Shown: piece after piece, positions 839-13,564 of the stretch | How the letters are laid out: every line of letters starts with the position of its first letter | Position numbering within the stretch: position 1 is the stretch's first letter | Source: CBDUXZ01 sp965371325 [NCBI: uncultured bacterium] | GTDB taxonomy: Bacteria > JAUYMQ01 | Length of the DNA stretch: 14,108 nucleotides | NCBI GenBank assembly: GCA_965371325.1 | Contig: CBDUXZ010000012.1 | Coordinates: forward strand, 1-14,108 | Reading direction: 5' to 3' | The notes under the pieces: model-generated | Database searches by the model: none | The model's input: the letters and a program-made list of their open reading frames with translations, nothing else | What the model was told of the DNA's origin: nothing | Translations under genes and position numbers: made by a program

Positions 839-1771
839 ATGCACACCTCCACCGCCTTTGCCGAGCGGCTGAACGAAGCCACGGTCAAGAAGCACTTTCA
901 CCCCATCGAGGACCTCGACTGGTCGGTCCCCCTCGACCTCGAGTCCCCCTACCGCTACCTCCCCGAGAAGTTCATCTCGCTCCGCGGCACCGTGCTCTAC
1001 GATCAGATGAGCGAGCGCGACAAGAAGCTCCTCTCCTTCTACGAGAGCGTGAGCTACTTCTCGACGGGCATCTGGCTCGAGAACATGCTCATGTACGGCT
1101 TCCTCTACAAGCTCTACGCGATGGACTACGCGAACCCCGACGTGCGCTACATGCTCCACGAGATCGCCGAGGAGGCGAACCACTCGATCATGTTCCACGA
1201 GTATGTGCGGAAGGCCGGGGTGGGTTACGCGCCGGCGCGCTGGTGGAACCGCGCGCTCGGGCGCTTCGGGGCGCGGCAGATTCCGTCGGTCAATATGTAT
1301 CTCTTTTTCATCGGAATTCTCGCCGGCGAGGAGCCGCCCGATCACTTCGCGAAGGCGGCCCGCGAGGACGACCGGGTGCACCCGCTTGTGCGGCGCATCA
1401 CCGAAATCCATTCCATCGAGGAGGCGCGGCACATCGCCTATGCGCGGGAGTTTCTGGGGAAGCGTTTCCATGAGGCAAACGCGCTGCAGAAGATCCACGC
1501 GCGTTTCGCGGCGCCCATCTCGGTGCGCGTGATTGTCGGCGAGTTCTTCACGCCGCGGTGGCCGACGGGGTATGACCAGGCGCCGGACCACCTGAAATTC
1601 TCACCGGCAATGAAGACGGCCATCGACCGCACGCGGCGGTTGAAGAATCCGGTGAAGCAGAAGCTTTTCCGCGATTCGGTGCAACGGGTGGTGGGGTTCT
1701 TCGAGCAGATCGGCCTCATCGACGAGAAGACGCGCTCCTACTGGCGCCGCTGGGGCCTCGTCGAGTCCTGA
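839..1771 (+). CDS. AurF-type diiron oxygenase (p-aminobenzoate N-oxygenase family)
   Basis: A 310-aa cytosolic ferritin-like protein. The complete ligand pattern of the AurF family (arylamine N-oxygenases such as AurF and CmlI) can be placed: E81, E112-x2-H115 (in EEANHSIMF), E164, and H191-x3-E195-x2-H198 (in HSIEEARHIAYA). The spacing from E164 to H191 and the H-x3-E-x2-H triad match AurF as I remember it. The family uses a dinuclear iron site and O2 to oxidise, usually, an amino group; the substrate here cannot be read from sequence. The ATG at 839 is preceded by GAAGAGG five bases upstream. The frame stays open further upstream to 503, but that part runs through the repeats and is not family-like. 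It converges with the DoxX gene; no biosynthetic cluster is visible beside it. Confidence 0.88.
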   Translation: MHTSTAFAERLNEATVKKHFHPIEDLDWSVPLDLESPYRYLPEKFISLRGTVLYDQMSERDKKLLSFYESVSYFSTGIWLENMLMYGFLYKLYAMDYANPDVRYMLHEIAEEANHSIMFHEYVRKAGVGYAPARWWNRALGRFGARQIPSVNMYLFFIGILAGEEPPDHFAKAAREDDRVHPLVRRITEIHSIEEARHIAYAREFLGKRFHEANALQKIHARFAAPISVRVIVGEFFTPRWPTGYDQAPDHLKFSPAMKTAIDRTRRLKNPVKQKLFRDSVQRVVGFFEQIGLIDEKTRSYWRRWGLVES

Positions 1772-2608: not shown

Positions 2609-4381
2609 TCAGGATGGAGGAGGCCGCAACCTGCGGAACTTGGGTTTCGAATCGCCGGGCGCGGGCGGCCCCGGGGATGGGGATGGGAACGGCGGCGGCC
2701 TGATCGGGGCACGCAGCCCGGGGGTGGGGTCGAATTCTTTCCAGTTGCCCCAGGAACCCCTGTTGGGCTTTTCGGCGCGGACGTGAACGCGCGCCTTGGC
2801 TGCCGATCCGAAAACCGTGAGGGGCACCGCGATCTCCGACGGGGGCGGCAGCAGCTGGTCATGGCCCTGGGGGTTCAGGCTCTTCCACTGCCCGTTGGTG
2901 AAACCCTGGTACTCGAAGCGGTACTCGCTGGATGAGAGCAGTCCGCCGAGTCGAATTTTCACACGGTTGAAAGTGACGGTCGTCGTGATTCTTGGCGGCG
3001 GCAGCGGCCGCAACTTGCGAACGGTCCCCGAAGACCCGCCGTCCGTCCCCTCCTTGGCATCGCGTCCCGCGGCCACACGAACGTCACGGATTTGCGGCTT
3101 GAGTCGATCGCCTGCCTCGCCCACATAGTATGTGGTCCACGGGCTCCAGGGGCCCTTGTACTCGGCACTGCTCCTGCCGCGGGCGCGTATCCTGAACTTC
3201 CCCTCGCCCGCGCTCCACAGGTCGAAGTTTGCATTCGAGGCCTGATCCCGGGTCACCGCGAATTCCATGCTCTTCCAGTCATCGTCCTTCTCGCTCCAGC
3301 GCACCCACTGCAGCTCGACGACAAGCCCGGGCATGCCCGTACCGGGTGCCGAGTCGCTGGGAGCCTTCGGCTTGTTCGGATTCCCCGCGCTCTCGTACCG
3401 GATGAGGGCCTGCACGGGGTCGTCGGGATGAAGCGAGTGGTTCCTGGGCTTCTGGATCGTCGCGAGGGGTTTCGTGCTGTCGACCTTGCCGCCGATCCAG
3501 AAAACACGTTTTCTGATTTCCGGCTCTAGAGAATGCTTGGGCGTTTTGGAAAACGCAGCTTCGATTCGCCATTTTCCCTCGCGCAGGTATTTTGCGTCGA
3601 TCACGCGATGGGTGCCCGTCTCGCCGACGGCGGTGATGGTGATCTCTGGGATGACGTCTTTCATTTCGGCATCGTGCCACCCGTCGTCCGGCCCGAGGTA
3701 GTACCATTCGAGGGTCACGGTGTCGGGGAAGTTGTAATCCGTGAACCACCCCTGGCCGGGGGGATCTTTCACTTCGATTTCGATAAGGCCGTAGTTAGGG
3801 AACTCCTCCTCATCCCCGGGAGAGACGATGATGGGTGCCGGGAGGGGAGACCACGAGGGCTTATCGGCGATCGCGGCGAGAATTTTTTCCCGCCCACCCC
3901 GGCTGATTGGCGCAATGGCGCCAGGGCACAAGCTCCAATTCACCTCATACTGGTCACCCCCGCCGCTGGTGGACGTATGGGTCGGGATGTAGCCCGTCTG
4001 GGTGCAGCCGGAATTGGATCGCCAGGGATCGCGGTCGCATCGAAAACTGGTTTCAATATACTTCGGTAGACCCTCGCCGTACGGCCCGCGAACCCCGATC
4101 TTCTCGACGCCCAGTTTGGAGAGCGGTGAATACTGGGCGTTGACGGATAACTGCTTCGTCGTGAGATTATTCGCGCTTTCGTAGTAGCCCGCGCAATCCA
4201 CCGACATTATATAAGTGTGTTTGAAGTGCTTTCCGTCAGAACCTTCCTGACCGAGCTTGTGGACTCCCGAGACGCTGCAGCTATGGACGCATCGGTTGGA
4301 GCGCTTGACCTCGGCGTTCGCCGGCAGGGAGAGGAAGCACAGCGCCCAAGCAAGCGTGAAGCACAGAATTCGGCCATTCAT
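2609..4381 (-). CDS. Exported 590-aa protein, Cys-rich head and beta-sandwich-like body, unknown function
   Basis: The signal peptide has a clear h-region and ANA cleavage site (after residue 23). The first part of the mature protein holds six cysteines (CVHSC, SVDCAGYY, FRCDRD, SGCTQ, WSLCPG). The body, which I see as cysteine-free, has strands such as VTLEWYYLGPDDGW, GKWRIEAAFSK, GKFRIRARGRSS and YRFEYQGFTNGQW, suggesting fibronectin-type III-like repeats. The C-terminus is proline-rich. A short element, RKLRPLPPP (about residue 455), recurs as RRLRPPPS at the very end. The piece YEVNWSLCPG faintly echoes KVNWSISPC in the A proteins. It is last in the five-gene minus-strand run, 60 nt after B2, with GAAGG upstream of its ATG. 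No family recognised. Confidence 0.85.
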   Translation of the reverse strand: MNGRILCFTLAWALCFLSLPANAEVKRSNRCVHSCSVSGVHKLGQEGSDGKHFKHTYIMSVDCAGYYESANNLTTKQLSVNAQYSPLSKLGVEKIGVRGPYGEGLPKYIETSFRCDRDPWRSNSGCTQTGYIPTHTSTSGGGDQYEVNWSLCPGAIAPISRGGREKILAAIADKPSWSPLPAPIIVSPGDEEEFPNYGLIEIEVKDPPGQGWFTDYNFPDTVTLEWYYLGPDDGWHDAEMKDVIPEITITAVGETGTHRVIDAKYLREGKWRIEAAFSKTPKHSLEPEIRKRVFWIGGKVDSTKPLATIQKPRNHSLHPDDPVQALIRYESAGNPNKPKAPSDSAPGTGMPGLVVELQWVRWSEKDDDWKSMEFAVTRDQASNANFDLWSAGEGKFRIRARGRSSAEYKGPWSPWTTYYVGEAGDRLKPQIRDVRVAAGRDAKEGTDGGSSGTVRKLRPLPPPRITTTVTFNRVKIRLGGLLSSSEYRFEYQGFTNGQWKSLNPQGHDQLLPPPSEIAVPLTVFGSAAKARVHVRAEKPNRGSWGNWKEFDPTPGLRAPIRPPPFPSPSPGPPAPGDSKPKFRRLRPPPS

Positions 4382-4425: not shown

Positions 4426-4441
4426 CCGGGATCTGGCCCGG
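4426..4441 (-). terminator. Hairpin directly after the B2 stop codon
   Basis: CCGGG and CCCGG arms enclose a six-base loop immediately downstream of the B2 stop (4442-4444). No U-tract follows, so an mRNA-end stabiliser or processing site is as likely as a terminator. A similar hairpin follows B1. Confidence 0.4.
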
Positions 4442-5059
4442 TTACTTTAGCTGCTGGTGTTGCTGGAACAGCTCCTTTACGCGCGCATGATCCGCCGGGG
4501 TGGCGGTGCCGCCCCGCACGCGGTTCTGGATCGCCGCAGCTTCCCGCTTGATGGCCTGGCTTGCTCCGTTGCCGTTCGTGGGGGCCGCCCGCGCCGCTCC
4601 CATTTTCGAGATCTTCGCCATCTCCGTCTTCACTTTGGCGTTCGCGGCGTTGATGCGCGACGCTTCCTCCTTCTCGAAGGCCGCCTGGAGGGCCGTGATC
4701 TTCGTGGCCTCGACGGTTCGCATTGCCTTCAGCTTGGCCAATCCCTTCTTCTGCTCCGTTACGCGTAACTTCTTCAGGTCCCTGACGGTCATCTCCTTGT
4801 TCCCGACCTGAACGCGCTGGGTGTCCTTCAGCTTCTTGAGGTCCCGCGCCATATTCTTGTTGAGCTTGAGCACGGGCTGCGCGCCCTTTCGGGTGAAGGT
4901 TTTCGCGGGCTTCGCCGCTTGATCCGTCTCAGGGGCAACCGCGGGCGACCTGGCGGGTGCGGCGGCCGGCCCCGCGCAGAGCCCTTCGGAGGGCGTGACG
5001 ACCAGGGACAAGCCGAGAAAGAGTATGGCGGTGAGGGCCAATCGATTCATTGCAAACAT
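4442..5059 (-). CDS. Module protein B2: small exported helical protein, paralog of B1
   Basis: A 205-aa protein with a signal peptide (cleavage likely after LCA, residue 29), then an Ala/Pro/Lys linker (TDQAAKPAKT) and a charged, Ala/Lys-rich helical region with coiled-coil character. It aligns with B1 along its length. Shared pieces are TDQAAKPAKT, KEMTV, AANAKVK-EMAK, AIQNR-RGGTATPAD and KELF-Q-QQLK at the end; in the last 30 residues I count 24 identities. The start is fixed by AAAGGAG at 5067-5073, seven bases before ATG, and the same start context occurs in B1. It lies 32 nt after A2, implying co-expression and perhaps partnership with it. The family is not one I recognise; no catalytic motif is visible. 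Confidence 0.85.
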   Translation of the reverse strand: MFAMNRLALTAILFLGLSLVVTPSEGLCAGPAAAPARSPAVAPETDQAAKPAKTFTRKGAQPVLKLNKNMARDLKKLKDTQRVQVGNKEMTVRDLKKLRVTEQKKGLAKLKAMRTVEATKITALQAAFEKEEASRINAANAKVKTEMAKISKMGAARAAPTNGNGASQAIKREAAAIQNRVRGGTATPADHARVKELFQQHQQLK

Positions 5060-5066
5060 GACTGTT

Positions 5067-5073
5067 CTCCTTT
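5067..5073 (-). promoter_or_regulatory. Ribosome-binding site of B2, conserved with B1
   Basis: AAAGGAG, a seven-base spacer and ATGTTT on the minus strand. The same arrangement (AAAGGAGAACAG, two bases, ATGTTT) precedes B1. Confidence 0.75.
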
Positions 5074-5091
5074 CCTACCTTCGTGTTCCGC

Positions 5092-6270
5092 TTAGTGATC
5101 GGTTCCTGTGGGGCCCTTGATGGCGACGGTGACGTAGTACATGATGCCGTCACAGGGCGAGATCGACCAATTCACCTTGATCCCGTTCGAGGTGAGACTG
5201 GCGCTCGCGCTTCCCTCACCCGGATCCACAGTATTGTGGATGTAGGCCTTGTCCAGCACCCAGCCGTTCTTGAGGGGTGCCTTGAGCAAATACGTGTCGT
5301 GGTCGACGTCGTTGCCGATCAGGCCGCAGTTCTGGTAGTGATAACCGGCAACCGTGCCCTGTGAGCTTATTTCGTTCGAGACAAAACATGAATCGTCCGG
5401 ATCCCCCCCGCCCACGCATGCGTCACAGTCCGAAGCGTTGCCGCAACCGAAGAAGCCGAGCTTCACGTCGCTCCGGGGAAGAGGCTTGAGGACCCGCCTC
5501 GCCGTGAAGTTCACCGGGCCTATGCGGTTGCTCTCGGCGCCGTTGGCTTTCTTGACATAGAACTCGCCCGGCTGATCCACGACCCCGAACGTACCCCACG
5601 GAATCGTGGCGCCGATGCCGCCGGTGCCCCATATGCCCACGGTGAGCTTGATGTCCCTCTTGTCGTTCTTGAGGTAGAGGTGCAGCTCGCCCTTGGTGCT
5701 TCCGAAATGCTTCCCGAACACGATCACGTCGCCGGTCGGCTCGATCACGGAGGAGGGGTGGATCTCTTGGAGGATGGGCTTCATCACGTGTATCTTGTAG
5801 GCGTCCTTCGAGATTATCTGTATTTTGCCGCAGTTGCCGAGAATGGCGCAGAGTAAGTCCTTCGACAAAATACCGGGCTTGATGGTGCCGCCCCCGCCAC
5901 CGTTCCCGCCGCCGACGCTACCCACCTGCAGCGTTTTCTGCGCGCTGTCGTTGCACTGCTCGACGGCAGAGGCCGTTACGACATAGTCTCCCGCGTTGGC
6001 GTAGGTATGGGTCACGCTGTCGTCGTTAGTGCTGTTGTTTTCGAAATCGGGATTGTCGATCACGACCGCCGGGGTGTTGTCCCCGAAGTTGATGCCGACC
6101 TTCTTGCACTTCTCGGTTCCCTGAACCGTGATGGTGACTTCCTGATTAGGCACTCCGGGATCGGGACTGAACGAGAGACCGGTGATACTCCCGTCGACAG
6201 CCTCGGCGCCGCCAGGCACCAGAGCCAGGAGCAGGCCTGCGATCAGGGGGATTAATCGCAGAGGTTTCAT
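5092..6270 (-). CDS. Module protein A2: exported PKD-like, TIG-like and Cys-rich protein, paralog of A1
   Basis: A 392-aa protein with a signal peptide ending GAEA (residue 24). Residues 26-117 are PKD-like (LSFSPDPG, INFGD, VTHTYANAGDYVVTA), followed by a Gly-rich linker (119-129). Then comes a KDLLCAILGNCG motif (137-148) and a TIG/IPT-like domain (164-258; GKHFGSTKGELHLYL and SNRIGPVNFTARR). A variable Cys-rich insert (266-308) contains CDAC, and a conserved C-terminal domain (309-392) contains DHDTY, IHNTVDPGEGSAS and VNWSISPCDG. Residues 174-259 match A1 at 64 of 86 positions by hand count. The start has AGAAGGAGG six bases upstream. It lies between B1 and B2. It is likely a surface or extracellular binding protein; function unknown. 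Confidence 0.87.
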   Translation of the reverse strand: MKPLRLIPLIAGLLLALVPGGAEAVDGSITGLSFSPDPGVPNQEVTITVQGTEKCKKVGINFGDNTPAVVIDNPDFENNSTNDDSVTHTYANAGDYVVTASAVEQCNDSAQKTLQVGSVGGGNGGGGGTIKPGILSKDLLCAILGNCGKIQIISKDAYKIHVMKPILQEIHPSSVIEPTGDVIVFGKHFGSTKGELHLYLKNDKRDIKLTVGIWGTGGIGATIPWGTFGVVDQPGEFYVKKANGAESNRIGPVNFTARRVLKPLPRSDVKLGFFGCGNASDCDACVGGGDPDDSCFVSNEISSQGTVAGYHYQNCGLIGNDVDHDTYLLKAPLKNGWVLDKAYIHNTVDPGEGSASASLTSNGIKVNWSISPCDGIMYYVTVAIKGPTGTDH

Positions 6271-6309
6271 GTCGATCCTCCTTCTGAAACAGCGGGTGTG
6301 TAGAACAAC

Positions 6310-6324
6310 CGGGGTCTTGCCCCG
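6310..6324 (-). terminator. Hairpin directly after the B1 stop codon
   Basis: CGGGG and CCCCG arms with a five-base loop immediately follow the B1 stop (6325-6327) on the minus strand. No clear U-tract follows. Its position matches the hairpin behind B2 although the sequences differ, so the structure rather than the sequence appears kept. Confidence 0.4.
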
Positions 6325-6939
6325 TTATTTTAGCTGCTGGTACTGGTCGAACAGCTCCTTCGCGCGCTTCTCGTCCGCCGGCGTCGCCGTGCCGCCACGC
6401 AGGCGGTTCTGGATCGCAAGGGCCTCGCGCCTGATCGCCTCGGCGCCGTTGGGAGGTGACGCCCCGGCTGGTTGCTTGCCGAGCTTCGCCATCTCCGCCT
6501 TCACCTTGGCGTTCGCGGCCTCGAGGCGTGCCGCGTCTTTCTGCTCAAATTCCTTTTGCAGGGCCGCCGCCGACATCGACGGCAACGGGGACATGGCCTT
6601 GAGCTTGCTAACCGCCTGCTTCCCTTCCTTCCTGATCTTCAGCTCGTACTGCCCGACGGTCATTTCCTTCCCCTTGACCAGAATCCGCTGGTTCTTCGGA
6701 AGCCTGTTCAATTTCTTCAGGGCCTTCTTGTCGAGCTTCATCACCCGGTCTGCGGGCTCCGCGGGCTCGCGATTGAGGGTTTTCGCAGGCTTCGCCGCCT
6801 GATCCGTCTTGGGGGCCAGCGCGGGTTTCTTGGCAGGCGCAGCGGTCACCCCGGCGCGCACCCCGTCAGAGGGCATGAACACAAGGAACAACCCGAGAAT
6901 AAGGATGGCGGTGAAGGCCGATCGACTTACTGGAAACAT
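6325..6939 (-). CDS. Module protein B1: small exported helical protein, paralog of B2
   Basis: A 204-aa protein. The frame also offers an ATG at 6960, but that reading (KKRRTA) translates the ribosome-binding site itself. AAAAGGAG (6947-6954) lies seven bases before the ATG at 6939, and the MF start and signal peptide then align residue for residue with B2, both with a likely cleavage after residue 29 (VRA here). The mature protein has a linker (TDQAAKPAKT), a basic helical stretch (KKALKKLNRLPKNQR), KGKEMTV, then Ala/Lys/Glu-rich helices and the conserved end RGGTATPAD-KELF-QYQQLK. It lies 29 nt after A1 and 54 nt before A2. No known family or enzyme motif is visible; a structural or binding partner of the A proteins is inferred only from gene pairing. 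Confidence 0.85.
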   Translation of the reverse strand: MFPVSRSAFTAILILGLFLVFMPSDGVRAGVTAAPAKKPALAPKTDQAAKPAKTLNREPAEPADRVMKLDKKALKKLNRLPKNQRILVKGKEMTVGQYELKIRKEGKQAVSKLKAMSPLPSMSAAALQKEFEQKDAARLEAANAKVKAEMAKLGKQPAGASPPNGAEAIRREALAIQNRLRGGTATPADEKRAKELFDQYQQLK

Positions 6940-6946
6940 GGCTGTT

Positions 6947-6954
6947 CTCCTTTT
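6947..6954 (-). promoter_or_regulatory. Ribosome-binding site that fixes the B1 start
   Basis: AAAAGGAG on the minus strand with a seven-base spacer to the ATG at 6937-6939. It lies inside the longer open frame from 6960, making that upstream ATG unlikely. Confidence 0.75.
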
Positions 6955-6968
6955 CTTCATACCCGCCC

Positions 6969-8138
6969 TTACTTGTAGTCGGTTCCAATCGGGCCCTTGA
7001 TGATGACGTTCACCTTGTAGGTCAGGCCATCACACTGCGTGACGGACCAATCGACCTTGACCCGCTTGGCGCTCTTGTTGAGGCTCACACTTGCGCTCCC
7101 CTCACCCGGATCCACGGTGTTGTGAATGGTGGCATGGTCCAGCGCCCAGCCGTTCTTGAAATTCGCGGTGATATCGTAGGTGTCATGGTCCGAATCACTG
7201 CCGATGCCGCAACTGGAGTAGTGAAAGCCGGAGAGAGCACCGTCTGTCTTGGTATGTGAGAAGCAATCGTGTGGACAGTTCGAGCGGGTGTTCGAGGCGA
7301 CGCAATTATTGCAGGAGGCCTCGCAGCTGCAGTCGTTGTATTTGACATCGCTCCGGGGAAGAAGCTGAACGCCCCGCCTCGCCGTGAAGCTCACCGGGCC
7401 GCTGCGGTTACTTTCGGTACCGGCGGCCGTCTTGACATAGAACTCGGCCGGCTGATCCACGACCCCGTAGGTCGCGTAGGGAATTTTTGCGCCGATGCCG
7501 CCGTTGTCCCATACGTCCACCGTGAGCTTGAGGTCCTTCTTGTCGGTCTTGAGGTAGAGGTGCAGCTCGCCCTTCGTCTTTCCGAAGTTCTGCCCAGTCA
7601 CGATCACGTCGCCGCCCGGCTCGATGACCGAGAAGGGGATGATCCCTCTGAGATAGGGCGGCAGCGCGACCAGCTTGCGGTCCTCCTTCACCCCCGCCCG
7701 CGCTCTTCCGCAGTTCTCGAGGATGACGCAGAGCAGGTCCTTCGGGCGCGCCACACCGGCCTTGACGCCGCCGTAAGCACCCACCGTCAGGCTCTTTTGC
7801 GCGCCACTCGCGGGATCGCACTGCTGAACGGGCGCGGCCGTCACCGTGTATGCGCCCGCGTCGGCATAAACATGGGTGATACTATTGTCATCGGTGCTGC
7901 TGTTATCGAAGTCCAGGTTGTCCAACACCACCGGCGACGAGATATCTCCGAAGTTGATGCTGACCTTCTTGCATTTGCCGCTTCCCAGAACCGTGATGAC
8001 CACACTCTGACCTTCCGTGCCGGGATCGGGACTGAACGAAACATCCTGGATCGTCCCGTCCTGCGCGTGCGCCCCGGCCGGGGCCAGCAGGACGAGCAGC
8101 GCCGCGCAGAGCGCCGGCATGGGGCGTGATCTTCTCAT
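6969..8138 (-). CDS. Module protein A1: exported PKD-like, TIG-like and Cys-rich protein, paralog of A2
   Basis: A 389-aa protein with a signal peptide ending GAHA (residue 25). Domain order is as in A2: PKD-like 26-120 (VSFSPDPG, INFGD, ITHVYADAGAYTVTA), KDLLCVILENCG (133-144), and TIG/IPT-like (about 160-255; GQNFGKTKGELHLYL). Next comes a Cys-rich insert (about 262-303) with six cysteines including CNNC, then a C-terminal domain (about 304-389) with DHDTY, IHNTVDPGEGSAS and VDWSVTQCDG. It lacks the poly-Gly linker of A2, and the insert is the least conserved part (six cysteines against four). GAAAGGAAAG precedes the ATG. It is first in the five-gene run, with a 488-bp upstream spacer, so the promoter of the run probably lies there. 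Confidence 0.87.
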   Translation of the reverse strand: MRRSRPMPALCAALLVLLAPAGAHAQDGTIQDVSFSPDPGTEGQSVVITVLGSGKCKKVSINFGDISSPVVLDNLDFDNSSTDDNSITHVYADAGAYTVTAAPVQQCDPASGAQKSLTVGAYGGVKAGVARPKDLLCVILENCGRARAGVKEDRKLVALPPYLRGIIPFSVIEPGGDVIVTGQNFGKTKGELHLYLKTDKKDLKLTVDVWDNGGIGAKIPYATYGVVDQPAEFYVKTAAGTESNRSGPVSFTARRGVQLLPRSDVKYNDCSCEASCNNCVASNTRSNCPHDCFSHTKTDGALSGFHYSSCGIGSDSDHDTYDITANFKNGWALDHATIHNTVDPGEGSASVSLNKSAKRVKVDWSVTQCDGLTYKVNVIIKGPIGTDYK

Positions 8139-8626: not shown

Positions 8627-9874
8627 CTACTCCTTGATTCGGAAGGCGCGCCAGTCGGAGGTGGCGAAGGGCATCTCCTTCTCGCCGATCGCCTGCACCC
8701 GCCAGCGGAGGCGCTCTCCGGCATGCTCCCGAAGCGAGGGCGGCGCGGTATAACTCGAGACGCCCGGGTTGAGCAGCGCCGAAAGCACGCTCTCGCCGTC
8801 CGCCTCCACCTCCAGCTTGTAGTAGACCGCGTCCTCCGGCTCGATCCAGCTGAAGGTGAGGGGATCGCCCGGCTCGAATTTGGCGCGTGGGTTCGGAAGC
8901 ACGAGCTGAAGCTCACCCGCCGTCAGATCGGCCAGAAGCTCGGCGTCCCGGGTGGAGCCCACGTAGTAGCGCAGGACGGGGATCGGAAAACCCGCCACGC
9001 CACCGGTCGGCACAACCCCGCCCGGAACCCCCGGCCCTATGATATTCGTGTTGCTCACCTTGTCGGTCGTGGCCTCGATGCGAAGCAGTATAAGGTGGAG
9101 TCCGTCAATCCGGCTGGGAAGCTTCTTGCGATCGGGACCCGGGATGAACACCTTTCCCGTCGGCGGAAGAACGCGATCAACCCGGGCGATGCGCATATAG
9201 CGGCGCTGCTTGAAGCGCTCCTCGACAGGGAGATTCGCCTCGGGCAACAGATCGAACATGCGAGGCTGCGAATCTCCCGGAAGCACCACCTCCCACCTCC
9301 CCTTGAGGCGTCCCGATCCGTCGTAGTAGATCTCCGCGCCGAAGGGCGGCGGCGCCATGCCGCGCGGGATCGTGAGCACGGGCTTATCCTTCTTCCATTT
9401 CAGGCGGACCTCGGTGAGTGAGAGTGGCACCCCGGCGCCGCCGGAGAGGAGACGGCACAAGACGGGGACGAACAGGGGATCCACGTCACCGATTTCGACG
9501 AACTGCTGAACGTAGAAGAATCGGGAGGGCCCGCCTTGCCGCGCGCGCTGGCTGGCCTGGCGCACCACCGAAGTCGGGAAGGTGACGACCCCCGAGAAGT
9601 TGCCGATACCGCTGGCCACGAGGTTCCCGGACGATCCGGGAACGCGCCCGAACAGGGTACCCGGCACGCAGCCGCCGCTCGAGTCGATCTCGCCGCACCA
9701 GAACGCCTTCACCGGAATCATATCCGAAGCGCCGCGGTAGGTAATGAAGACGGTGGTGGGACCAGTCTGGCGCACGTTGACGACCGCCGGGCTCGCCGAA
9801 AGCGCACGCGCTTCTCCGGCCGCACCAAGCAGCAGCAAACCACAGGTCAGAAAACAAGCGAAGTAACGAATCAT
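8627..9874 (-). CDS. Exported 415-aa protein downstream of the outer-membrane barrel gene, unknown function
   Basis: I place the start at the ATG at 9872-9874, giving a classic signal peptide (MIRYFACFLTCGLLLLGAAG, then EARA, cleavage after residue 24). The longer open frame to 10054 overlaps the barrel gene and lacks this feature. The N-terminal part (ASPAVVNVRQTGPTTVFITY) is Ig-like. Next come a two-cysteine segment (FWCGEIDSSGGC) and a middle region of strands (RLKWKKDKPVLTIPRG, GRWEVVLPGD). The C-terminal domain looks like fibronectin type III (LTFSWIEPEDAVYYKLEVE, GERLRWRVQAIG, SDWRAFRIKE). It follows the barrel gene by 20 nt, so the two are probably one transcript. The ribosome-binding site is weak (GTGGGG). 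It may be a periplasmic or surface partner of the barrel; no family recognised. Confidence 0.82.
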   Translation of the reverse strand: MIRYFACFLTCGLLLLGAAGEARALSASPAVVNVRQTGPTTVFITYRGASDMIPVKAFWCGEIDSSGGCVPGTLFGRVPGSSGNLVASGIGNFSGVVTFPTSVVRQASQRARQGGPSRFFYVQQFVEIGDVDPLFVPVLCRLLSGGAGVPLSLTEVRLKWKKDKPVLTIPRGMAPPPFGAEIYYDGSGRLKGRWEVVLPGDSQPRMFDLLPEANLPVEERFKQRRYMRIARVDRVLPPTGKVFIPGPDRKKLPSRIDGLHLILLRIEATTDKVSNTNIIGPGVPGGVVPTGGVAGFPIPVLRYYVGSTRDAELLADLTAGELQLVLPNPRAKFEPGDPLTFSWIEPEDAVYYKLEVEADGESVLSALLNPGVSSYTAPPSLREHAGERLRWRVQAIGEKEMPFATSDWRAFRIKE

Positions 9875-9894
9875 CGCGGCACCCCACTCTCTTA

Positions 9895-12069
9895 TCAGAA
9901 AAAACTGATGCTCATTCCCCCGTTGAACGTCCAGAATGTGCCCGAGCGCGAAACGTCCATCAACGGTGATCCCGTGAAAACCAGGATCGGGTCGCGCGAC
10001 TTGTCCGATTGCCAGAGGAAGCGCAGGTATGCGCGGCCCGGCAGTCTCTTCCACCCGCGCGCGTCAATCTCGAAGTTGTACGACAGCTCGGTCTCCACCA
10101 TCCTCGACCGGCTCGTCGCCCCGCCCGTCCCGTCCGAGTCGCTCGTGGTCGTGAAGTTCGCCAGAGCGCTCCAGTCGGGCAGGAACTCCCAGTCCGCGCC
10201 GAAGTTCCAGCTCCGCGTGTATTGGTTCACACCCATCTCCTGCATGTGAACCCGGGTCTTATCGAAACCGCCGTTCAGCCACAGACCCTCAACCGGCTCC
10301 ACGGCACCCGAAACGGTGTGCGTGACGGTGAGAAAGTCGTTATTCGACATATTGGGCTGGCGGTTGTCCTCGGCGGAGTGCGAGAGGGAGTACTCGGCGT
10401 TCCATCGCGTGTCGCTGAAGCTGACCACCACGTTCTGAAGAGTGCTGACGAGATCCGGGATGTCTCCCGGGGGAATTGTCGTAATCGGCATGAAGGGATC
10501 TTCCGGCGTTGCAAAGGAGAAGCCCCCGAAGCCGGAGAGCATGGAGATGGGTTTGTTTGCGCCATACTGATGGACGCGGTTCCACGCATAGCTCACGTTC
10601 GGCCACCACGGCTTGCCCGAGCCGCGCCCATCCCACAGCTGACCCACGGGGACGTTCACGTTGAACCTGGCGTCCTCGGTCTTCATCTTGAGGATGGATG
10701 GCACGTCATCGATGTTGTCCTCGATCCACGTGTGCATGAACTGGCCTGTGACGCCGGCGATATCAACATCGAGGATGGCTTCGTTCAGAAGCTGATCCGA
10801 GTTTGTCATCACGCCGATGCTCTTGAACTCCGGATCGATTCTCTCGTGGCGGTAGGTCGTCGTGACGGTGGCCGTACGGCTGCCCCACAGCTCCTGATTC
10901 CTGATGACATCGACGGAAGCCTCGCCCGACCATGCGTTCTGCGTCTTTTTCTGCGACGCGTTGATGAAAACGTTGCCGTCAAGGCTGTTATCGAATGGGT
11001 TCTCGAAGCTGCTCCGCGCGTATGTCCCGTGGGTGCGTATTCGTTCCGAAAAAGCGTTTGTCTCGAGGGTGAATCCGATCCCGCGGCTTCTCTCCTTGTC
11101 TGGTATCTCGCCCACGTTGAAATCGCTGATGGGCTCGAGAGAACCGTACAGGAGGGTGGTCTCGAATCGCGAATTGATCATCTCCTTGTCGAGCAGCTGT
11201 ATCCCGATGGTGCCGGCCGTGATGTTGTGATCGCGGTCGCGCAGTCCGACGAAGTTCTGGTATCCAACGATGCTGGTTCCGTTCATCGACGCCACCGACA
11301 GGGTGATCAGGTCCTTGAACTCGTAGGTAAACATGATGCCTCGGCTGTACATATGATCGAGCAGGTACTGGTTCCGCCCGTAGACGATGTGACCCACCTG
11401 TAATTCAGCGTTTCCTTTCCTGAGAATCACCTGGTAGTCGCTGAGATCGAACTGATCCGCGCCGGTCCCCCGCTCCCCGAACTGGAGGGCCTCCTCCGCA
11501 AGGGTCACGCCCAGGAAGTTGAACTCGGTGTGAAGCTCGGCATCCTTACGCCTTGCGTCGGTGGTGATGCCCACGTCGAATGTGGCGTCGGTGGCCGGGG
11601 TCTTGTCCGGCGGGGCAGCGTCGCCCTCCGTGCGGGCGTCGAAGTGCGAGATGAGCGAGGCGTTGAAGCGCGGATCGACGTCAAACTCCTCGAAGCCCGC
11701 TCGCGTGAGGACCCTGATCTGAAAGCGTCCGATCTCCTCCCAGTCCTCGTCCCCCTTCACGAGATGGACAATGAGATCCTGCTCACCGCTCGGAAGCTTG
11801 ACCACGCGCGAAACAAAGACGAGCTCGTCCTGCTCCTCGCGGAACTGGGAGCTCAGATCGGTGTCGCCGATGAAGATCGCGATTTTGCCTTCGGCGGGAT
11901 CGGGGATGCGATCGAACTTGATGCGGATCGGCTCGTCCCGCTTGATCCAGGTCTCGCCGTCGAAGCTGGTCTCGACGACGGAAACCGCCGCGAAGGCAGA
12001 AAGCGGAAGGAAAATCGCCGCGAGCGGAAGGCAGATCGCAAGTGCAGCAGTTTTCATCCAGAGGGCCAT
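9895..12069 (-). CDS. Outer-membrane beta-barrel protein with N-terminal Ig-like domain
   Basis: About 724 aa. The signal peptide (MALWMKTAALAICLPLAAIF, then LPLSAFA) is cleaved near residue 27. Residues 28 to about 125 look like an Ig-type sandwich (VETSFDGETWIKRDEPIRI, IAIFIGDTDLSS, RFQIRVLTR). From about residue 140 onward alternating polar and hydrophobic strands repeat (ELHTEFNFLGVTL, NAELQVGHIVYGR, GIMFTYEFKDLITLSVASM, ATVTTTYRHERI). The protein ends in SISFF, a C-terminal aromatic typical of proteins folded by the BAM complex. I see no TonB box or plug. I chose the ATG at 12069, preceded by GCAGGG ten bases away; 12087 is an alternative that adds six residues. It is the first gene of a two-gene unit. 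Transported substrate or ligand unknown. Confidence 0.85.
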   Translation of the reverse strand: MALWMKTAALAICLPLAAIFLPLSAFAAVSVVETSFDGETWIKRDEPIRIKFDRIPDPAEGKIAIFIGDTDLSSQFREEQDELVFVSRVVKLPSGEQDLIVHLVKGDEDWEEIGRFQIRVLTRAGFEEFDVDPRFNASLISHFDARTEGDAAPPDKTPATDATFDVGITTDARRKDAELHTEFNFLGVTLAEEALQFGERGTGADQFDLSDYQVILRKGNAELQVGHIVYGRNQYLLDHMYSRGIMFTYEFKDLITLSVASMNGTSIVGYQNFVGLRDRDHNITAGTIGIQLLDKEMINSRFETTLLYGSLEPISDFNVGEIPDKERSRGIGFTLETNAFSERIRTHGTYARSSFENPFDNSLDGNVFINASQKKTQNAWSGEASVDVIRNQELWGSRTATVTTTYRHERIDPEFKSIGVMTNSDQLLNEAILDVDIAGVTGQFMHTWIEDNIDDVPSILKMKTEDARFNVNVPVGQLWDGRGSGKPWWPNVSYAWNRVHQYGANKPISMLSGFGGFSFATPEDPFMPITTIPPGDIPDLVSTLQNVVVSFSDTRWNAEYSLSHSAEDNRQPNMSNNDFLTVTHTVSGAVEPVEGLWLNGGFDKTRVHMQEMGVNQYTRSWNFGADWEFLPDWSALANFTTTSDSDGTGGATSRSRMVETELSYNFEIDARGWKRLPGRAYLRFLWQSDKSRDPILVFTGSPLMDVSRSGTFWTFNGGMSISFF

Positions 12070-12136
12070 GGATGGAACACCCTGCATCCGTGGTTAACTG
12101 CCATGTGGAGCCATGCGGGAGGGCAGACTGGCCGGG

Positions 12137-12145
12137 AGTCTATCA
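12137..12145 (-). promoter_or_regulatory. Weak extended -10 candidate for the barrel operon
   Basis: TGATAGACT on the minus strand is an extended -10 form (TGn plus four of six bases). No good -35 box lies at the right distance. It would start transcription about 60 nt before the ATG. Confidence 0.22.
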
Positions 12146-12181
12146 CAGGCCCATCGCAACGATGCCTCGAATTAATGCACC

Positions 12182-12246
12182 AAAAAGTGGGACAGTCCCC
12201 CTTTTTATCTCCATTTTTAGGGGATTTAAAGGGGACTGTCCCACTT
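12182..12246 (-). terminator. Probable intrinsic terminator formed by the MITE-like element
   Basis: Read on the minus strand, the long stem is followed by a run of five T (12182-12186), whose first two pair with the stem's A bases. The structure begins about 20 bases after the stop of the TIG-CARDB gene. This is a good factor-independent terminator, isolating that gene from the barrel operon. Confidence 0.6.
12185..12246. repeat. 62-bp MITE-like inverted-repeat element
   Basis: The ends are perfect 16-bp inverted repeats, AAGTGGGACAGTCCCC (12185-12200) and GGGGACTGTCCCACTT (12231-12246). The interior pairs on, with a few mismatches (TTTTTATCTCC against GGGGATTTAAA), around an ATTTTTA loop. 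Each arm also contains its own small palindrome, GGGAC-A-GTCCC. No transposase is encoded, so it would be mobilised in trans if it moves. I recall similar GGGACAGTCCC elements near REP-associated tyrosine transposases; this is memory, not a search. Confidence 0.75.
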
Positions 12247-12265
12247 AAATTGCTCAATTGTTGTG

Positions 12266-13564
12266 CTATTCGGGTTCGGAGCGGACGCGGATGCGCGCCC
12301 GGAAGGCCCGGCTCCCGCAGTCATGTGTATCCGAATCTTCCTCGAAGGTGCCCCCGCCCTGCCACTGCTCGGGCGTCAGCGGAATCTTGATGTCGCCGAC
12401 TTGATCATCCTCCCCCGTCGTGAAGTCATCGGATTCCAAGACGAAAAGCATCACGAGGATCTTGTCGTTCCACCCCACGCCGTTGATCCGCACCGTTCGA
12501 TCCATGTCATAACCGTGACCGGTATCGACATCCCGCCGCCATTCCTGTCGCTCCGAGCGGAGGGGTGTGTAGCTGTGGCCGTCTTCCAATAGTCGACCAA
12601 CGGCGGCCTCGAGTCGGAGCCTCCAGTCGCCCTCGGAAACGCTGTCGCAGTCATCCCGCACGTCGATGCGCTCCAATGTCGCGGTGACCGCGTAGTTGGG
12701 AATACGGTAGCGCACCTCGAAGGTGTTGTTGGCGCGGTTCGCATCCCTGAATGCGAGGGGGGACTCGGGGGTCCCCAGGGCAACCGTCGTGCGCAGCACG
12801 CCGTCCCGAATCAGGTTCGGCGGGGCGCCGATGTCGATCGGGACGTCCACGGTCCGACCGGGGCCAACGGACGTGGGCGCGCTCGAAACGACAGGCGTCG
12901 ATGCCCCGGTTGCGGATACGACGAAGCGCCGCGCGCGTCCGCCCTTGTTCTCGACGCGCACCCGGATGGAAAGGGCGTTTCTGCTCGGGGTGGCCACGGC
13001 ATCCACAGGCGGGTCGATCCCCACGATGGCCAGGTCGTCGAGCCGGGGGCTGGGGGTCTCCTTCCGCCCACGTTCGAGCTCTCCCATGCGCACTTGATCC
13101 CCGTCGAGGCGGGGGCGCGCTTCACCGGTGTCGGGGCCGGGACCCGGCCCCTTGCCGGACTCTTTCCCGACCCTGAGCTCCCGGAGCCGGTTGCTCTTCA
13201 GGGTGTCACGCTCGTAAATCGCGAGCCAGTAGAGGCCGCCGGGGATGCGGCGGGGCAGGTGCGCGCGTATGCTTCGATCCGACCAACTGATGATTGCGGC
13301 GGTGCCCATTGGCGTCCCGTTGGTGCCGTAGCGAATAATATGTTCAGGTTTCCGCACGCCCCAGCCGCTTCCGTGTATCGTCACCACGTCATCGGCGCTT
13401 ACCGCGGTGGGTTCATAACGATCGATGCGGGGAGCGGCCTGGGCAATCGAGGCCGGCGAGAAAACCGCTAGTACGAAAACAATAAGGACGGCTGCCAACC
13501 CAATGGCAGTCCCGCACCGCACCGAATGTTGATGCCGTAAAAGTCGCGCTTCGTCGTCTTTCAT
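12266..13564 (-). CDS. Exported protein with TIG/IPT and CARDB-like domains and a C2-like tail
   Basis: A 432-aa protein with a long signal peptide: a charged n-region of about 18 residues, then a strong hydrophobic core ending ASIAQA (cleavage after residue 43). Residues 44-132 look like a TIG/IPT domain (PRIDRYEPTAVSADDVVTIH, then GSGWG). A Gly/Pro-rich linker follows to about 155. Residues 176-288 resemble CARDB (SIRVRVENKGG, GPGRTVDVPIDI, DANRANNTFEVRYRI). The C-terminal domain (about 295-432) has an acidic DDCDSVSEGDWRLRL start, VRINGVGWNDKILVMLFVLES and EDDQVGDIKIPL. Two cysteines (306, 416) could form a disulfide. It resembles a calcium-binding C2-type sandwich, but that is inference. 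AGGGAGGG lies eight bases before the ATG. It is a single-gene unit; likely an adhesive or surface role. Confidence 0.85.
   Translation of the reverse strand: MKDDEARLLRHQHSVRCGTAIGLAAVLIVFVLAVFSPASIAQAAPRIDRYEPTAVSADDVVTIHGSGWGVRKPEHIIRYGTNGTPMGTAAIISWSDRSIRAHLPRRIPGGLYWLAIYERDTLKSNRLRELRVGKESGKGPGPGPDTGEARPRLDGDQVRMGELERGRKETPSPRLDDLAIVGIDPPVDAVATPSRNALSIRVRVENKGGRARRFVVSATGASTPVVSSAPTSVGPGRTVDVPIDIGAPPNLIRDGVLRTTVALGTPESPLAFRDANRANNTFEVRYRIPNYAVTATLERIDVRDDCDSVSEGDWRLRLEAAVGRLLEDGHSYTPLRSERQEWRRDVDTGHGYDMDRTVRINGVGWNDKILVMLFVLESDDFTTGEDDQVGDIKIPLTPEQWQGGGTFEEDSDTHDCGSRAFRARIRVRSEPE

What the first reader, a model, noticed from the sequence alone, without database searches (positions are those of the whole stretch)
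4442..8138. Tandem duplication of an undescribed two-gene module, A1-B1-A2-B2
Two exported-protein genes of about 390 and 205 codons are present twice in the same order and strand. The A proteins share every domain (64 of 86 residues identical over the TIG-like core by hand count), and the B proteins share the whole layout (24 of the last 30). Retention of both genes in both copies suggests A and B work as a pair, and that the two pairs have diverged in specificity. Neither B nor the A C-terminal domain matches a family I know. Pairing and complex formation are inference.
Basis: partly seen in the sequence, partly recalled or inferred. Interest (0 to 1): 0.78.

Follow-up and report, generated by a model that had tools for sequence, protein, structure and literature searches.

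The report
Duplicated secreted Ig-like and helical pair
Two neighbouring genes for secreted proteins, one built of immunoglobulin-like domains and one mostly helical, were duplicated side by side in an uncultured bacterium, and distant relatives in which the two occur next to each other or as one fused protein suggest that they act together, although what they do is unknown.

Summary
Confirmed: A1-B1-A2-B2 lie head to tail on the minus strand (8138 down to 4442). A = signal peptide, PKD, TIG-like domain and a family-specific C-terminal beta domain; B = signal peptide, basic linker, helical region. B and the A C-terminal domain reach no cut-off in Pfam or NCBIfam.

G482 has A-B-A in a tight row. 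Three proteins (two in G512, one in G485) carry a B-like region fused in front of TIG + C-terminal domain, where PKD would sit. This supports an A-B partnership, but the B link is remote: a profile of the fused N-termini alone picks B1 as best non-self hit of 4,055 ORFs at E 0.0097. A also occurs without a visible B (G413; three copies in G649). Nothing shows divergent specificity.

Best reading: a secreted A-B complex or co-assembled surface pair. In this lineage and in G001, A follows an outer-membrane barrel + C415 dyad. Biochemical function is not established.

The parts
6969..8138 (-). A1, 389 aa: signal-peptide-like N-terminus, PKD, TIG-like domain, C-terminal beta domain ending GPIGTDYK
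   Evidence: ORF; PKD 21.9 bits (cut-off 23.5) and TIG 16.5 bits (cut-off 20.9); model mean pLDDT 80; TIG part Z 14.9 to 3bmv
6325..6960 (-). B1, 211 aa: signal-peptide-like N-terminus, Ala/Pro/Lys-rich linker, ILVKGKEMT motif, helical region
   Evidence: ORF; no Pfam or NCBIfam match at cut-off; best non-self hit of the fused N-terminus profile
5092..6270 (-). A2, 392 aa: same layout as A1
   Evidence: 55% identical to A1; PKD 25.5 bits, above the cut-off
4442..5059 (-). B2, 205 aa: same layout as B1
   Evidence: 55% identical to B1
6310..6324 (-). GC hairpin directly after the B1 stop codon
   Evidence: fold z -1.43, so weak
4426..4441 (-). GC hairpin directly after the B2 stop codon, with a different stem sequence
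   Evidence: fold z -1.47, so weak
8627..9874 (-). C415, 415-aa exported protein upstream of A1, second gene of the barrel-C415 dyad (association with A, not shown to be part of it)
   Evidence: homologues directly downstream of the barrel in 17 of 17 loci with a C415 match, window included; barrel-C415-A order kept in G001
9895..12087 (-). 730-aa outer-membrane-barrel-like protein, first gene of the dyad
   Evidence: relatives in 17 of 393 genomes; weak porin/OMP matches in single members of 15
2609..4381 (-). 590-aa exported protein downstream of B2 (neighbour, function unknown)
   Evidence: 65% identical homologue on G001:C266

Best explanation
A and B are secreted partner proteins. A (PKD-TIG-C-terminal beta domain) is an Ig-like binding or structural subunit, and B is a small helical partner that binds or presents it in the periplasm or on the cell surface. 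In some relatives a B-like region is fused to TIG + C-terminal domain in place of PKD, so the two parts work as one unit. The A-B unit was duplicated in tandem in this lineage at about the age of its split from G001. Shown: the duplication, the domain layout, export-type N-termini (by eye), the A-B-A row in G482, the fusions, separate A duplications in three lineages. Inferred: physical binding, location, and a role in binding a ligand or matrix at the surface.
For: A-B-A row in G482 with 15 and 20 bp gaps. Three fusions in two genomes. A profile of the fused N-termini alone has B1 as best non-self hit of 4,055 unique ORFs, E 0.0097, next 2.3, best reversed 0.93. Local-shuffle tests: B1 vs G482 B z 6.1 and B1 vs G512:C541 z 4.8 (0 of 400 each), control helical protein z -0.3 and 0.2. 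In the tree of TIG + C-terminal domain the copies of the window, G482 and G649 group within each genome, support 100, 100 and 94. Both genes duplicated and kept open in the window.
Against: The B link is remote: a B1+B2 profile does not list the G482 gene among its 12 best rows and gives G512:C541 only E 0.17, behind unrelated ORFs. B2 vs G482 z 1.4 (43 of 400); G485 and G512:C595 score z 0.5-2.3 against B1/B2. Reversed G482 B also matches the three-sequence B profile, so composition contributes. A occurs without visible B in G413 and three times in G649. The G482 and fused cases were found by looking at A loci. No binding was tested.
Confidence: 0.5

Rival explanations
1. B is an interchangeable stalk, spacer or co-expressed helper (for example a periplasmic chaperone), not a stable partner. 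TIG + C-terminal domain is the working unit, and its N-terminal module is swapped between PKD, a B-like region and other Ig-like domains.
For: N-terminal modules differ across the family while TIG + C-terminal domain stay; A occurs without visible B in G413 and G649.
Against: In the window and in G482 the B gene is separate yet lies within the A gene row, and in the window it was duplicated and kept with A.
Confidence: 0.25
2. A, B and the neighbouring exported proteins are cargo or surface parts of the barrel + C415 apparatus encoded directly upstream, which would export or assemble them. This can be true together with the best explanation.
For: Order barrel-C415-A is kept in G001. In other genomes the barrel-C415 dyad lies beside exported CARDB or other Ig-like proteins.
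Against: No A or B profile match in the other barrel loci examined. In G413, G485, G649 and both G512 fusion loci no barrel profile match of note lies near A (for four of these loci groups; the C595 contig was not scanned with the barrel profile). The barrel-like gene upstream of A in G482 shows no detectable relation to the window barrel (hhalign probability 0.3). 488 bp separate C415 from A1.
Confidence: 0.25
3. A and B are independent genes that happen to lie together and were duplicated in one block. The B-like regions elsewhere are Lys/Ala-rich helical sequence, alike by composition only.
For: Weak B2 scores, the composition effect with reversed sequence, and a coiled-coil false hit.
Against: The fused-N-terminus profile ranks B1 above every other non-self ORF; a comparable secreted helical protein scores no better than its shuffles; B-like gene between two A genes in G482.
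Confidence: 0.15

Closest known systems
IPT/TIG domain (PF01833), as in cyclodextrin glycosyltransferases
   Same: Predicted fold of A1 residues about 157-254: Z 14.9, rmsd 1.8, 88 residues aligned to 3bmv; family profile matches 1qho at E 6.6e-6
   Different: TIG scores below the Pfam cut-off in A1; A is not an amylase-type enzyme and adds PKD and an own C-terminal domain
PKD domain (PF00801)
   Same: N-terminal domain of A; A2 passes the Pfam cut-off, A1 just misses it
   Different: Only one domain of three, replaced by other modules in relatives
CARDB (PF07705) and other exported Ig-like proteins beside the barrel-C415 dyad
   Same: Exported, Ig-like, gene neighbours of the same barrel family
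   Different: No A or B profile match in those loci

Membership tests
PKD domain PF00801 | score at or above the curated cut-off of 23.5 bits | tested here: met
   A2 25.5 bits; A1 21.9 bits misses it
IPT/TIG domain PF01833 | score at or above the curated cut-off of 20.9 bits | tested here: not met
   A1 16.5 bits at residues 161-228; A2 12.6 bits, and that match lies over its PKD region
IPT/TIG domain PF01833 | TIG fold | tested here: met
   Z 14.9 to the cyclodextrin glycosyltransferase entry 3bmv on a model with pLDDT 82-92 there
Any Pfam or NCBIfam family for the A C-terminal domain | match at curated cut-off | tested here: not met
Any Pfam or NCBIfam family for B | match at curated cut-off | tested here: not met
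   best rows E 0.028-0.067, far below cut-offs
Chaperone-usher pilus system (considered for barrel + C415) | usher or pilus-chaperone Pfam families | tested here: not met
   no family for the window proteins; 14 C415 and 15 barrel members show none of them among the listed families
Two-protein A-B complex | physical interface | not testable with these tools
   no complex prediction on hand

The most novel reading that the evidence does not exclude
A-B is a repeatedly duplicated, surface-exposed recognition pair: the A C-terminal domain and its B partner diverge together copy by copy to recognise different ligands or partners, and in this lineage the pair is delivered by an undescribed outer-membrane barrel + C415 apparatus.
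Probability: 0.12. Interest if true: 0.7.

Novelty: new variant of a known kind. Interest (0 to 1): 0.45.

Why it matters
It marks out a small family (C-terminal beta domain, most members ending in GPxGT plus a few residues, with a helical partner) that Pfam and NCBIfam do not hold, and gene fusions make the partnership directly testable. It also brings out a wider barrel + C415 gene dyad, found together in 17 loci, without a family of its own in Pfam (C415 also none in NCBIfam). If the pair binds, it is a new kind of two-part extracytoplasmic module in uncultured bacteria.

Tried and rejected
Pattern scans with A1+A2 in genome and viral contigs and tblastn of A1 in plasmids found no relatives. 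AlphaFold2 of A1 with 3 rows was unusable (pLDDT 41) and was replaced by the 11-row job. Class and phylum searches around G001 returned only G001. A1+A2 in 50 further relatives of G001 gave only a PKD-region match in G026. A11 in 192 relatives of G001 gave 7 genomes, none but G001 with an A homologue; the other rows are TIG-region or PKD-region matches.

The G482 upstream barrel-like protein as a homologue of the window barrel: not supported. The G527 B hit: rejected, it reads as an efflux-type coiled-coil protein (by eye). PKD-only and TIG-only rows were not counted as A homologues. G689 (L126: TIG plus the start of the C-terminal domain) was left out of the counts. The Foldseek list is dominated by multi-Ig proteins with TM-scores of 0.13-0.21 over the query and says nothing specific. 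The VIA rows span mainly residues 43-254, so the C-terminal domain fold was not tested. The viral fold library was not searched.

Papers: one search (TIG domain, PKD domain, Acidobacteria, secreted; all terms) listed 0 papers; one (CARDB, outer membrane beta-barrel, Acidobacteriota; at least two) listed 2, which look unrelated from title and start of abstract. No paper was opened.

Full report
OBSERVATION. The four ORFs exist as described, on the minus strand. A1/A2: 221 of 402 identical; B1/B2: 115 of 209. The long DNA repeats keep register at about 1.87 kb. The hand counts 64 of 86 and 24 of 30 are exact. Gaps of 8, 54 and 32 bp suggest one transcript (inference); the promoter and terminator scans found no more sites than shuffles did. 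Each B stop codon is followed at once by a GC hairpin of 5 pairs whose stem sequence differs between the copies (z -1.47 and -1.43, so weak).

DOMAINS. A2 passes the Pfam PKD cut-off and A1 just misses it; A1 has a TIG match below the cut-off, and the weak TIG match of A2 lies over its PKD region. Signal peptides were judged by eye. AlphaFold2 with 11 family members gives mean pLDDT 80 and pTM 0.53; the C-terminal domain (from about residue 261) has block means of 84-95 except 71 and 67 at residues 281-300. The TIG part matches cyclodextrin glycosyltransferases, Z 14.9, rmsd 1.8, 88 residues, and the family profile matches 1qho at E 6.6e-6. The C-terminal domain was not covered by the fold search, so whether its fold is known stays open. 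B has no match at a curated cut-off and only rows at E 0.4 or worse in PDB sequences; PHROGs gave only rows at E 0.064-0.087, for A2 and B2.

RELATIVES. No whole genome is held for the window. A fragment of the neighbouring AurF-like gene led to 16 loci; the best, L005, is a 'Deltaproteobacteria bacterium' contig, 88% identical over the 100-residue fragment. Its genome is G001. G001:C327 holds barrel, C415 homologue and A in the window's order; A is cut by the contig end. A fragment matching B (E 1.6e-5, 38 profile positions) lies at the end of G001:C266, whose genes include the 590-aa homologue and DoxX. G001 thus has A and at least a remnant of B; adjacency is unresolved.

A in 393 relatives of G083: 11 genomes match at E 0.001. 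In 5 of them (G413, G482, G485, G512, G649; 8 places) matches run into TIG and, in 7 of the 8 places, clearly into the C-terminal domain; in the other 6 genomes only the PKD region matches. The shorter G482 match (to profile position 283 of 388) belongs to a full-length A ORF, seen whole with the wider profile. With the wider profile A11, 29 of 373 relatives of G512 match. Within G512 this added one full homologue (C595) and two proteins with the C-terminal part but no TIG (C448, C665); the further genomes give TIG-region or PKD-region matches, G689 reaching into the start of the C-terminal domain. Among 192 relatives of G001, 7 match, none but G001 an A homologue. Four or five candidates per genome were scored in the larger searches, so counts are lower bounds. 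The profiles contain the members that they find again.

A AND B TOGETHER. G482 (L088, minus strand): barrel-like protein cut by the contig end, A (11364-12548), B-like (10824-11348, 174 aa), A (9616-10803); gaps 15 and 20 bp. G512:C541, G512:C595 and G485:C15: one protein each with an export-type N-terminus, a B-like region (motif of the type IxxxGKxxT, then helix), TIG and C-terminal domain. A profile of these three N-termini, without any B, has B1 as best non-self hit of 4,055 unique ORFs from the loci and the window, E 0.0097; next best 2.3; best reversed sequence 0.93; B2 only E 3.7. Against: the B1+B2 profile gives G512:C541 only E 0.17, behind unrelated ORFs at 0.036 and 0.12, its best reversed hit is 0.086, and the G482 gene is not among its 12 listed rows; the profile with G482 B added also matches reversed G482 B at E 5e-5, a composition effect. 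Local-shuffle tests, 400 each: B1-G482 z 6.1 (0), B1-G512:C541 4.8 (0), B2-G512:C541 2.9 (3), B2-G482 1.4 (43), B1-G485 0.5 (112), B2-G485 2.3 (13), B1-G512:C595 1.9 (25), B2-G512:C595 1.6 (31); control helical secreted protein of L059 -0.3 (245) and 0.2 (165). Only 5 further helical control segments were available; all score below G482 and G512:C541, but the best one (49 against B1) beats G485 (39) and G512:C595 (43). The three fused N-termini resemble each other (z 17.4, 5.6, 5.4). The relation to B is therefore likely but remote and partly carried by composition. These cases were found by looking at A loci. The B-profile search of 196 genomes found the same places and one false hit.

A WITHOUT B. 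G413: none seen on its 3,124-bp contig (849 bp upstream; a gene on the other strand 23 bp downstream). G649: three copies, none with a B match; two flank a 618-aa Ig-like protein. G512: two proteins with the C-terminal part but no TIG. The B profile is insensitive, so a diverged B could be missed.

HISTORY. In a maximum-likelihood tree of TIG + C-terminal domain (11 sequences) the two G482 copies group together (100), the G649 tandem pair groups (94), and A1 + A2 are split from the rest (100): separate duplications in three lineages. Over the N-terminal stretch shared with G001: A1-A2 107 of 190, A2-G001 108 of 191, A1-G001 96 of 188 identical; dS A1-A2 0.75, A2-G001 0.83, A1-G001 1.27: the duplication is about as old as the split from G001. 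dN/dS: A1-A2 0.335/0.747, B1-B2 0.346/0.615; no gene-wide positive selection.

SURROUNDINGS. The barrel has relatives in 17 of 393 relatives of G083, itself included, and in G083 and G001 among 386 relatives of G001. In 17 of 17 loci with a C415 match (window, G001 and 15 others, two of them from G540) C415 lies directly downstream of the barrel; in the other three barrel loci (L062, L066, L067) the barrel runs to a contig end on that side. Neighbours in some of these loci are CARDB or other Ig-like exported proteins, Trans_reg_C + TPR regulators, Ser/Thr kinases and a CHAT protein. Outside the window and G001 none of these loci had an A or B profile match. G512 has both a barrel (C293) and A-type fusions, on different contigs. 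Single barrel members match porin or OMP families weakly; C415 has no family in Pfam or NCBIfam (one stray row at E 0.021).

CONCLUSION. A real tandem duplication of a two-gene unit. The A-B partnership is supported by a second gene row and by fusions, with remote sequence evidence for B. Function is inference: a secreted Ig-like protein with a helical partner, probably at the cell surface.

Noticed in passing
window 8627-12087; loci L024, L034, L037, L054-L061, L063-L065, L068, L069: Barrel + C415: an undescribed gene dyad, C415 directly downstream of the barrel in 17 of 17 loci with a C415 match, often near exported Ig-like or CARDB proteins and TPR regulators or kinases.
   Followed up: partly
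L035, L024 and L025 (G001 contigs C574, C327, C266): Three contigs of G001 share about 110 bases from the start of the barrel gene at their ends, and on C266 this stretch runs straight into the B fragment: an assembly break, a repeat or a rearranged copy.
   Followed up: no
window 860-1771: AurF-like diiron oxygenase gene beside an SdiA-regulated/phytase-like gene; the same pair is in L005.
   Followed up: no
window about 660-710 and 2440-2550: Dispersed repeat-like stretches that read GGSLALPK / REPRPPK in several frames; L005 and L025 show another one reading VGSDP or MGSDP.
   Followed up: no
L059 6917-7558: A 213-aa secreted, Lys/Ala-rich helical protein directly downstream of C415, similar to B in type only (z -0.3 and 0.2).
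   Followed up: partly
window 12266-13564: 432-aa exported protein with a TIG domain (21.8 bits, above cut-off) upstream of the barrel on the same strand; no match to it in the other loci scanned.
   Followed up: no
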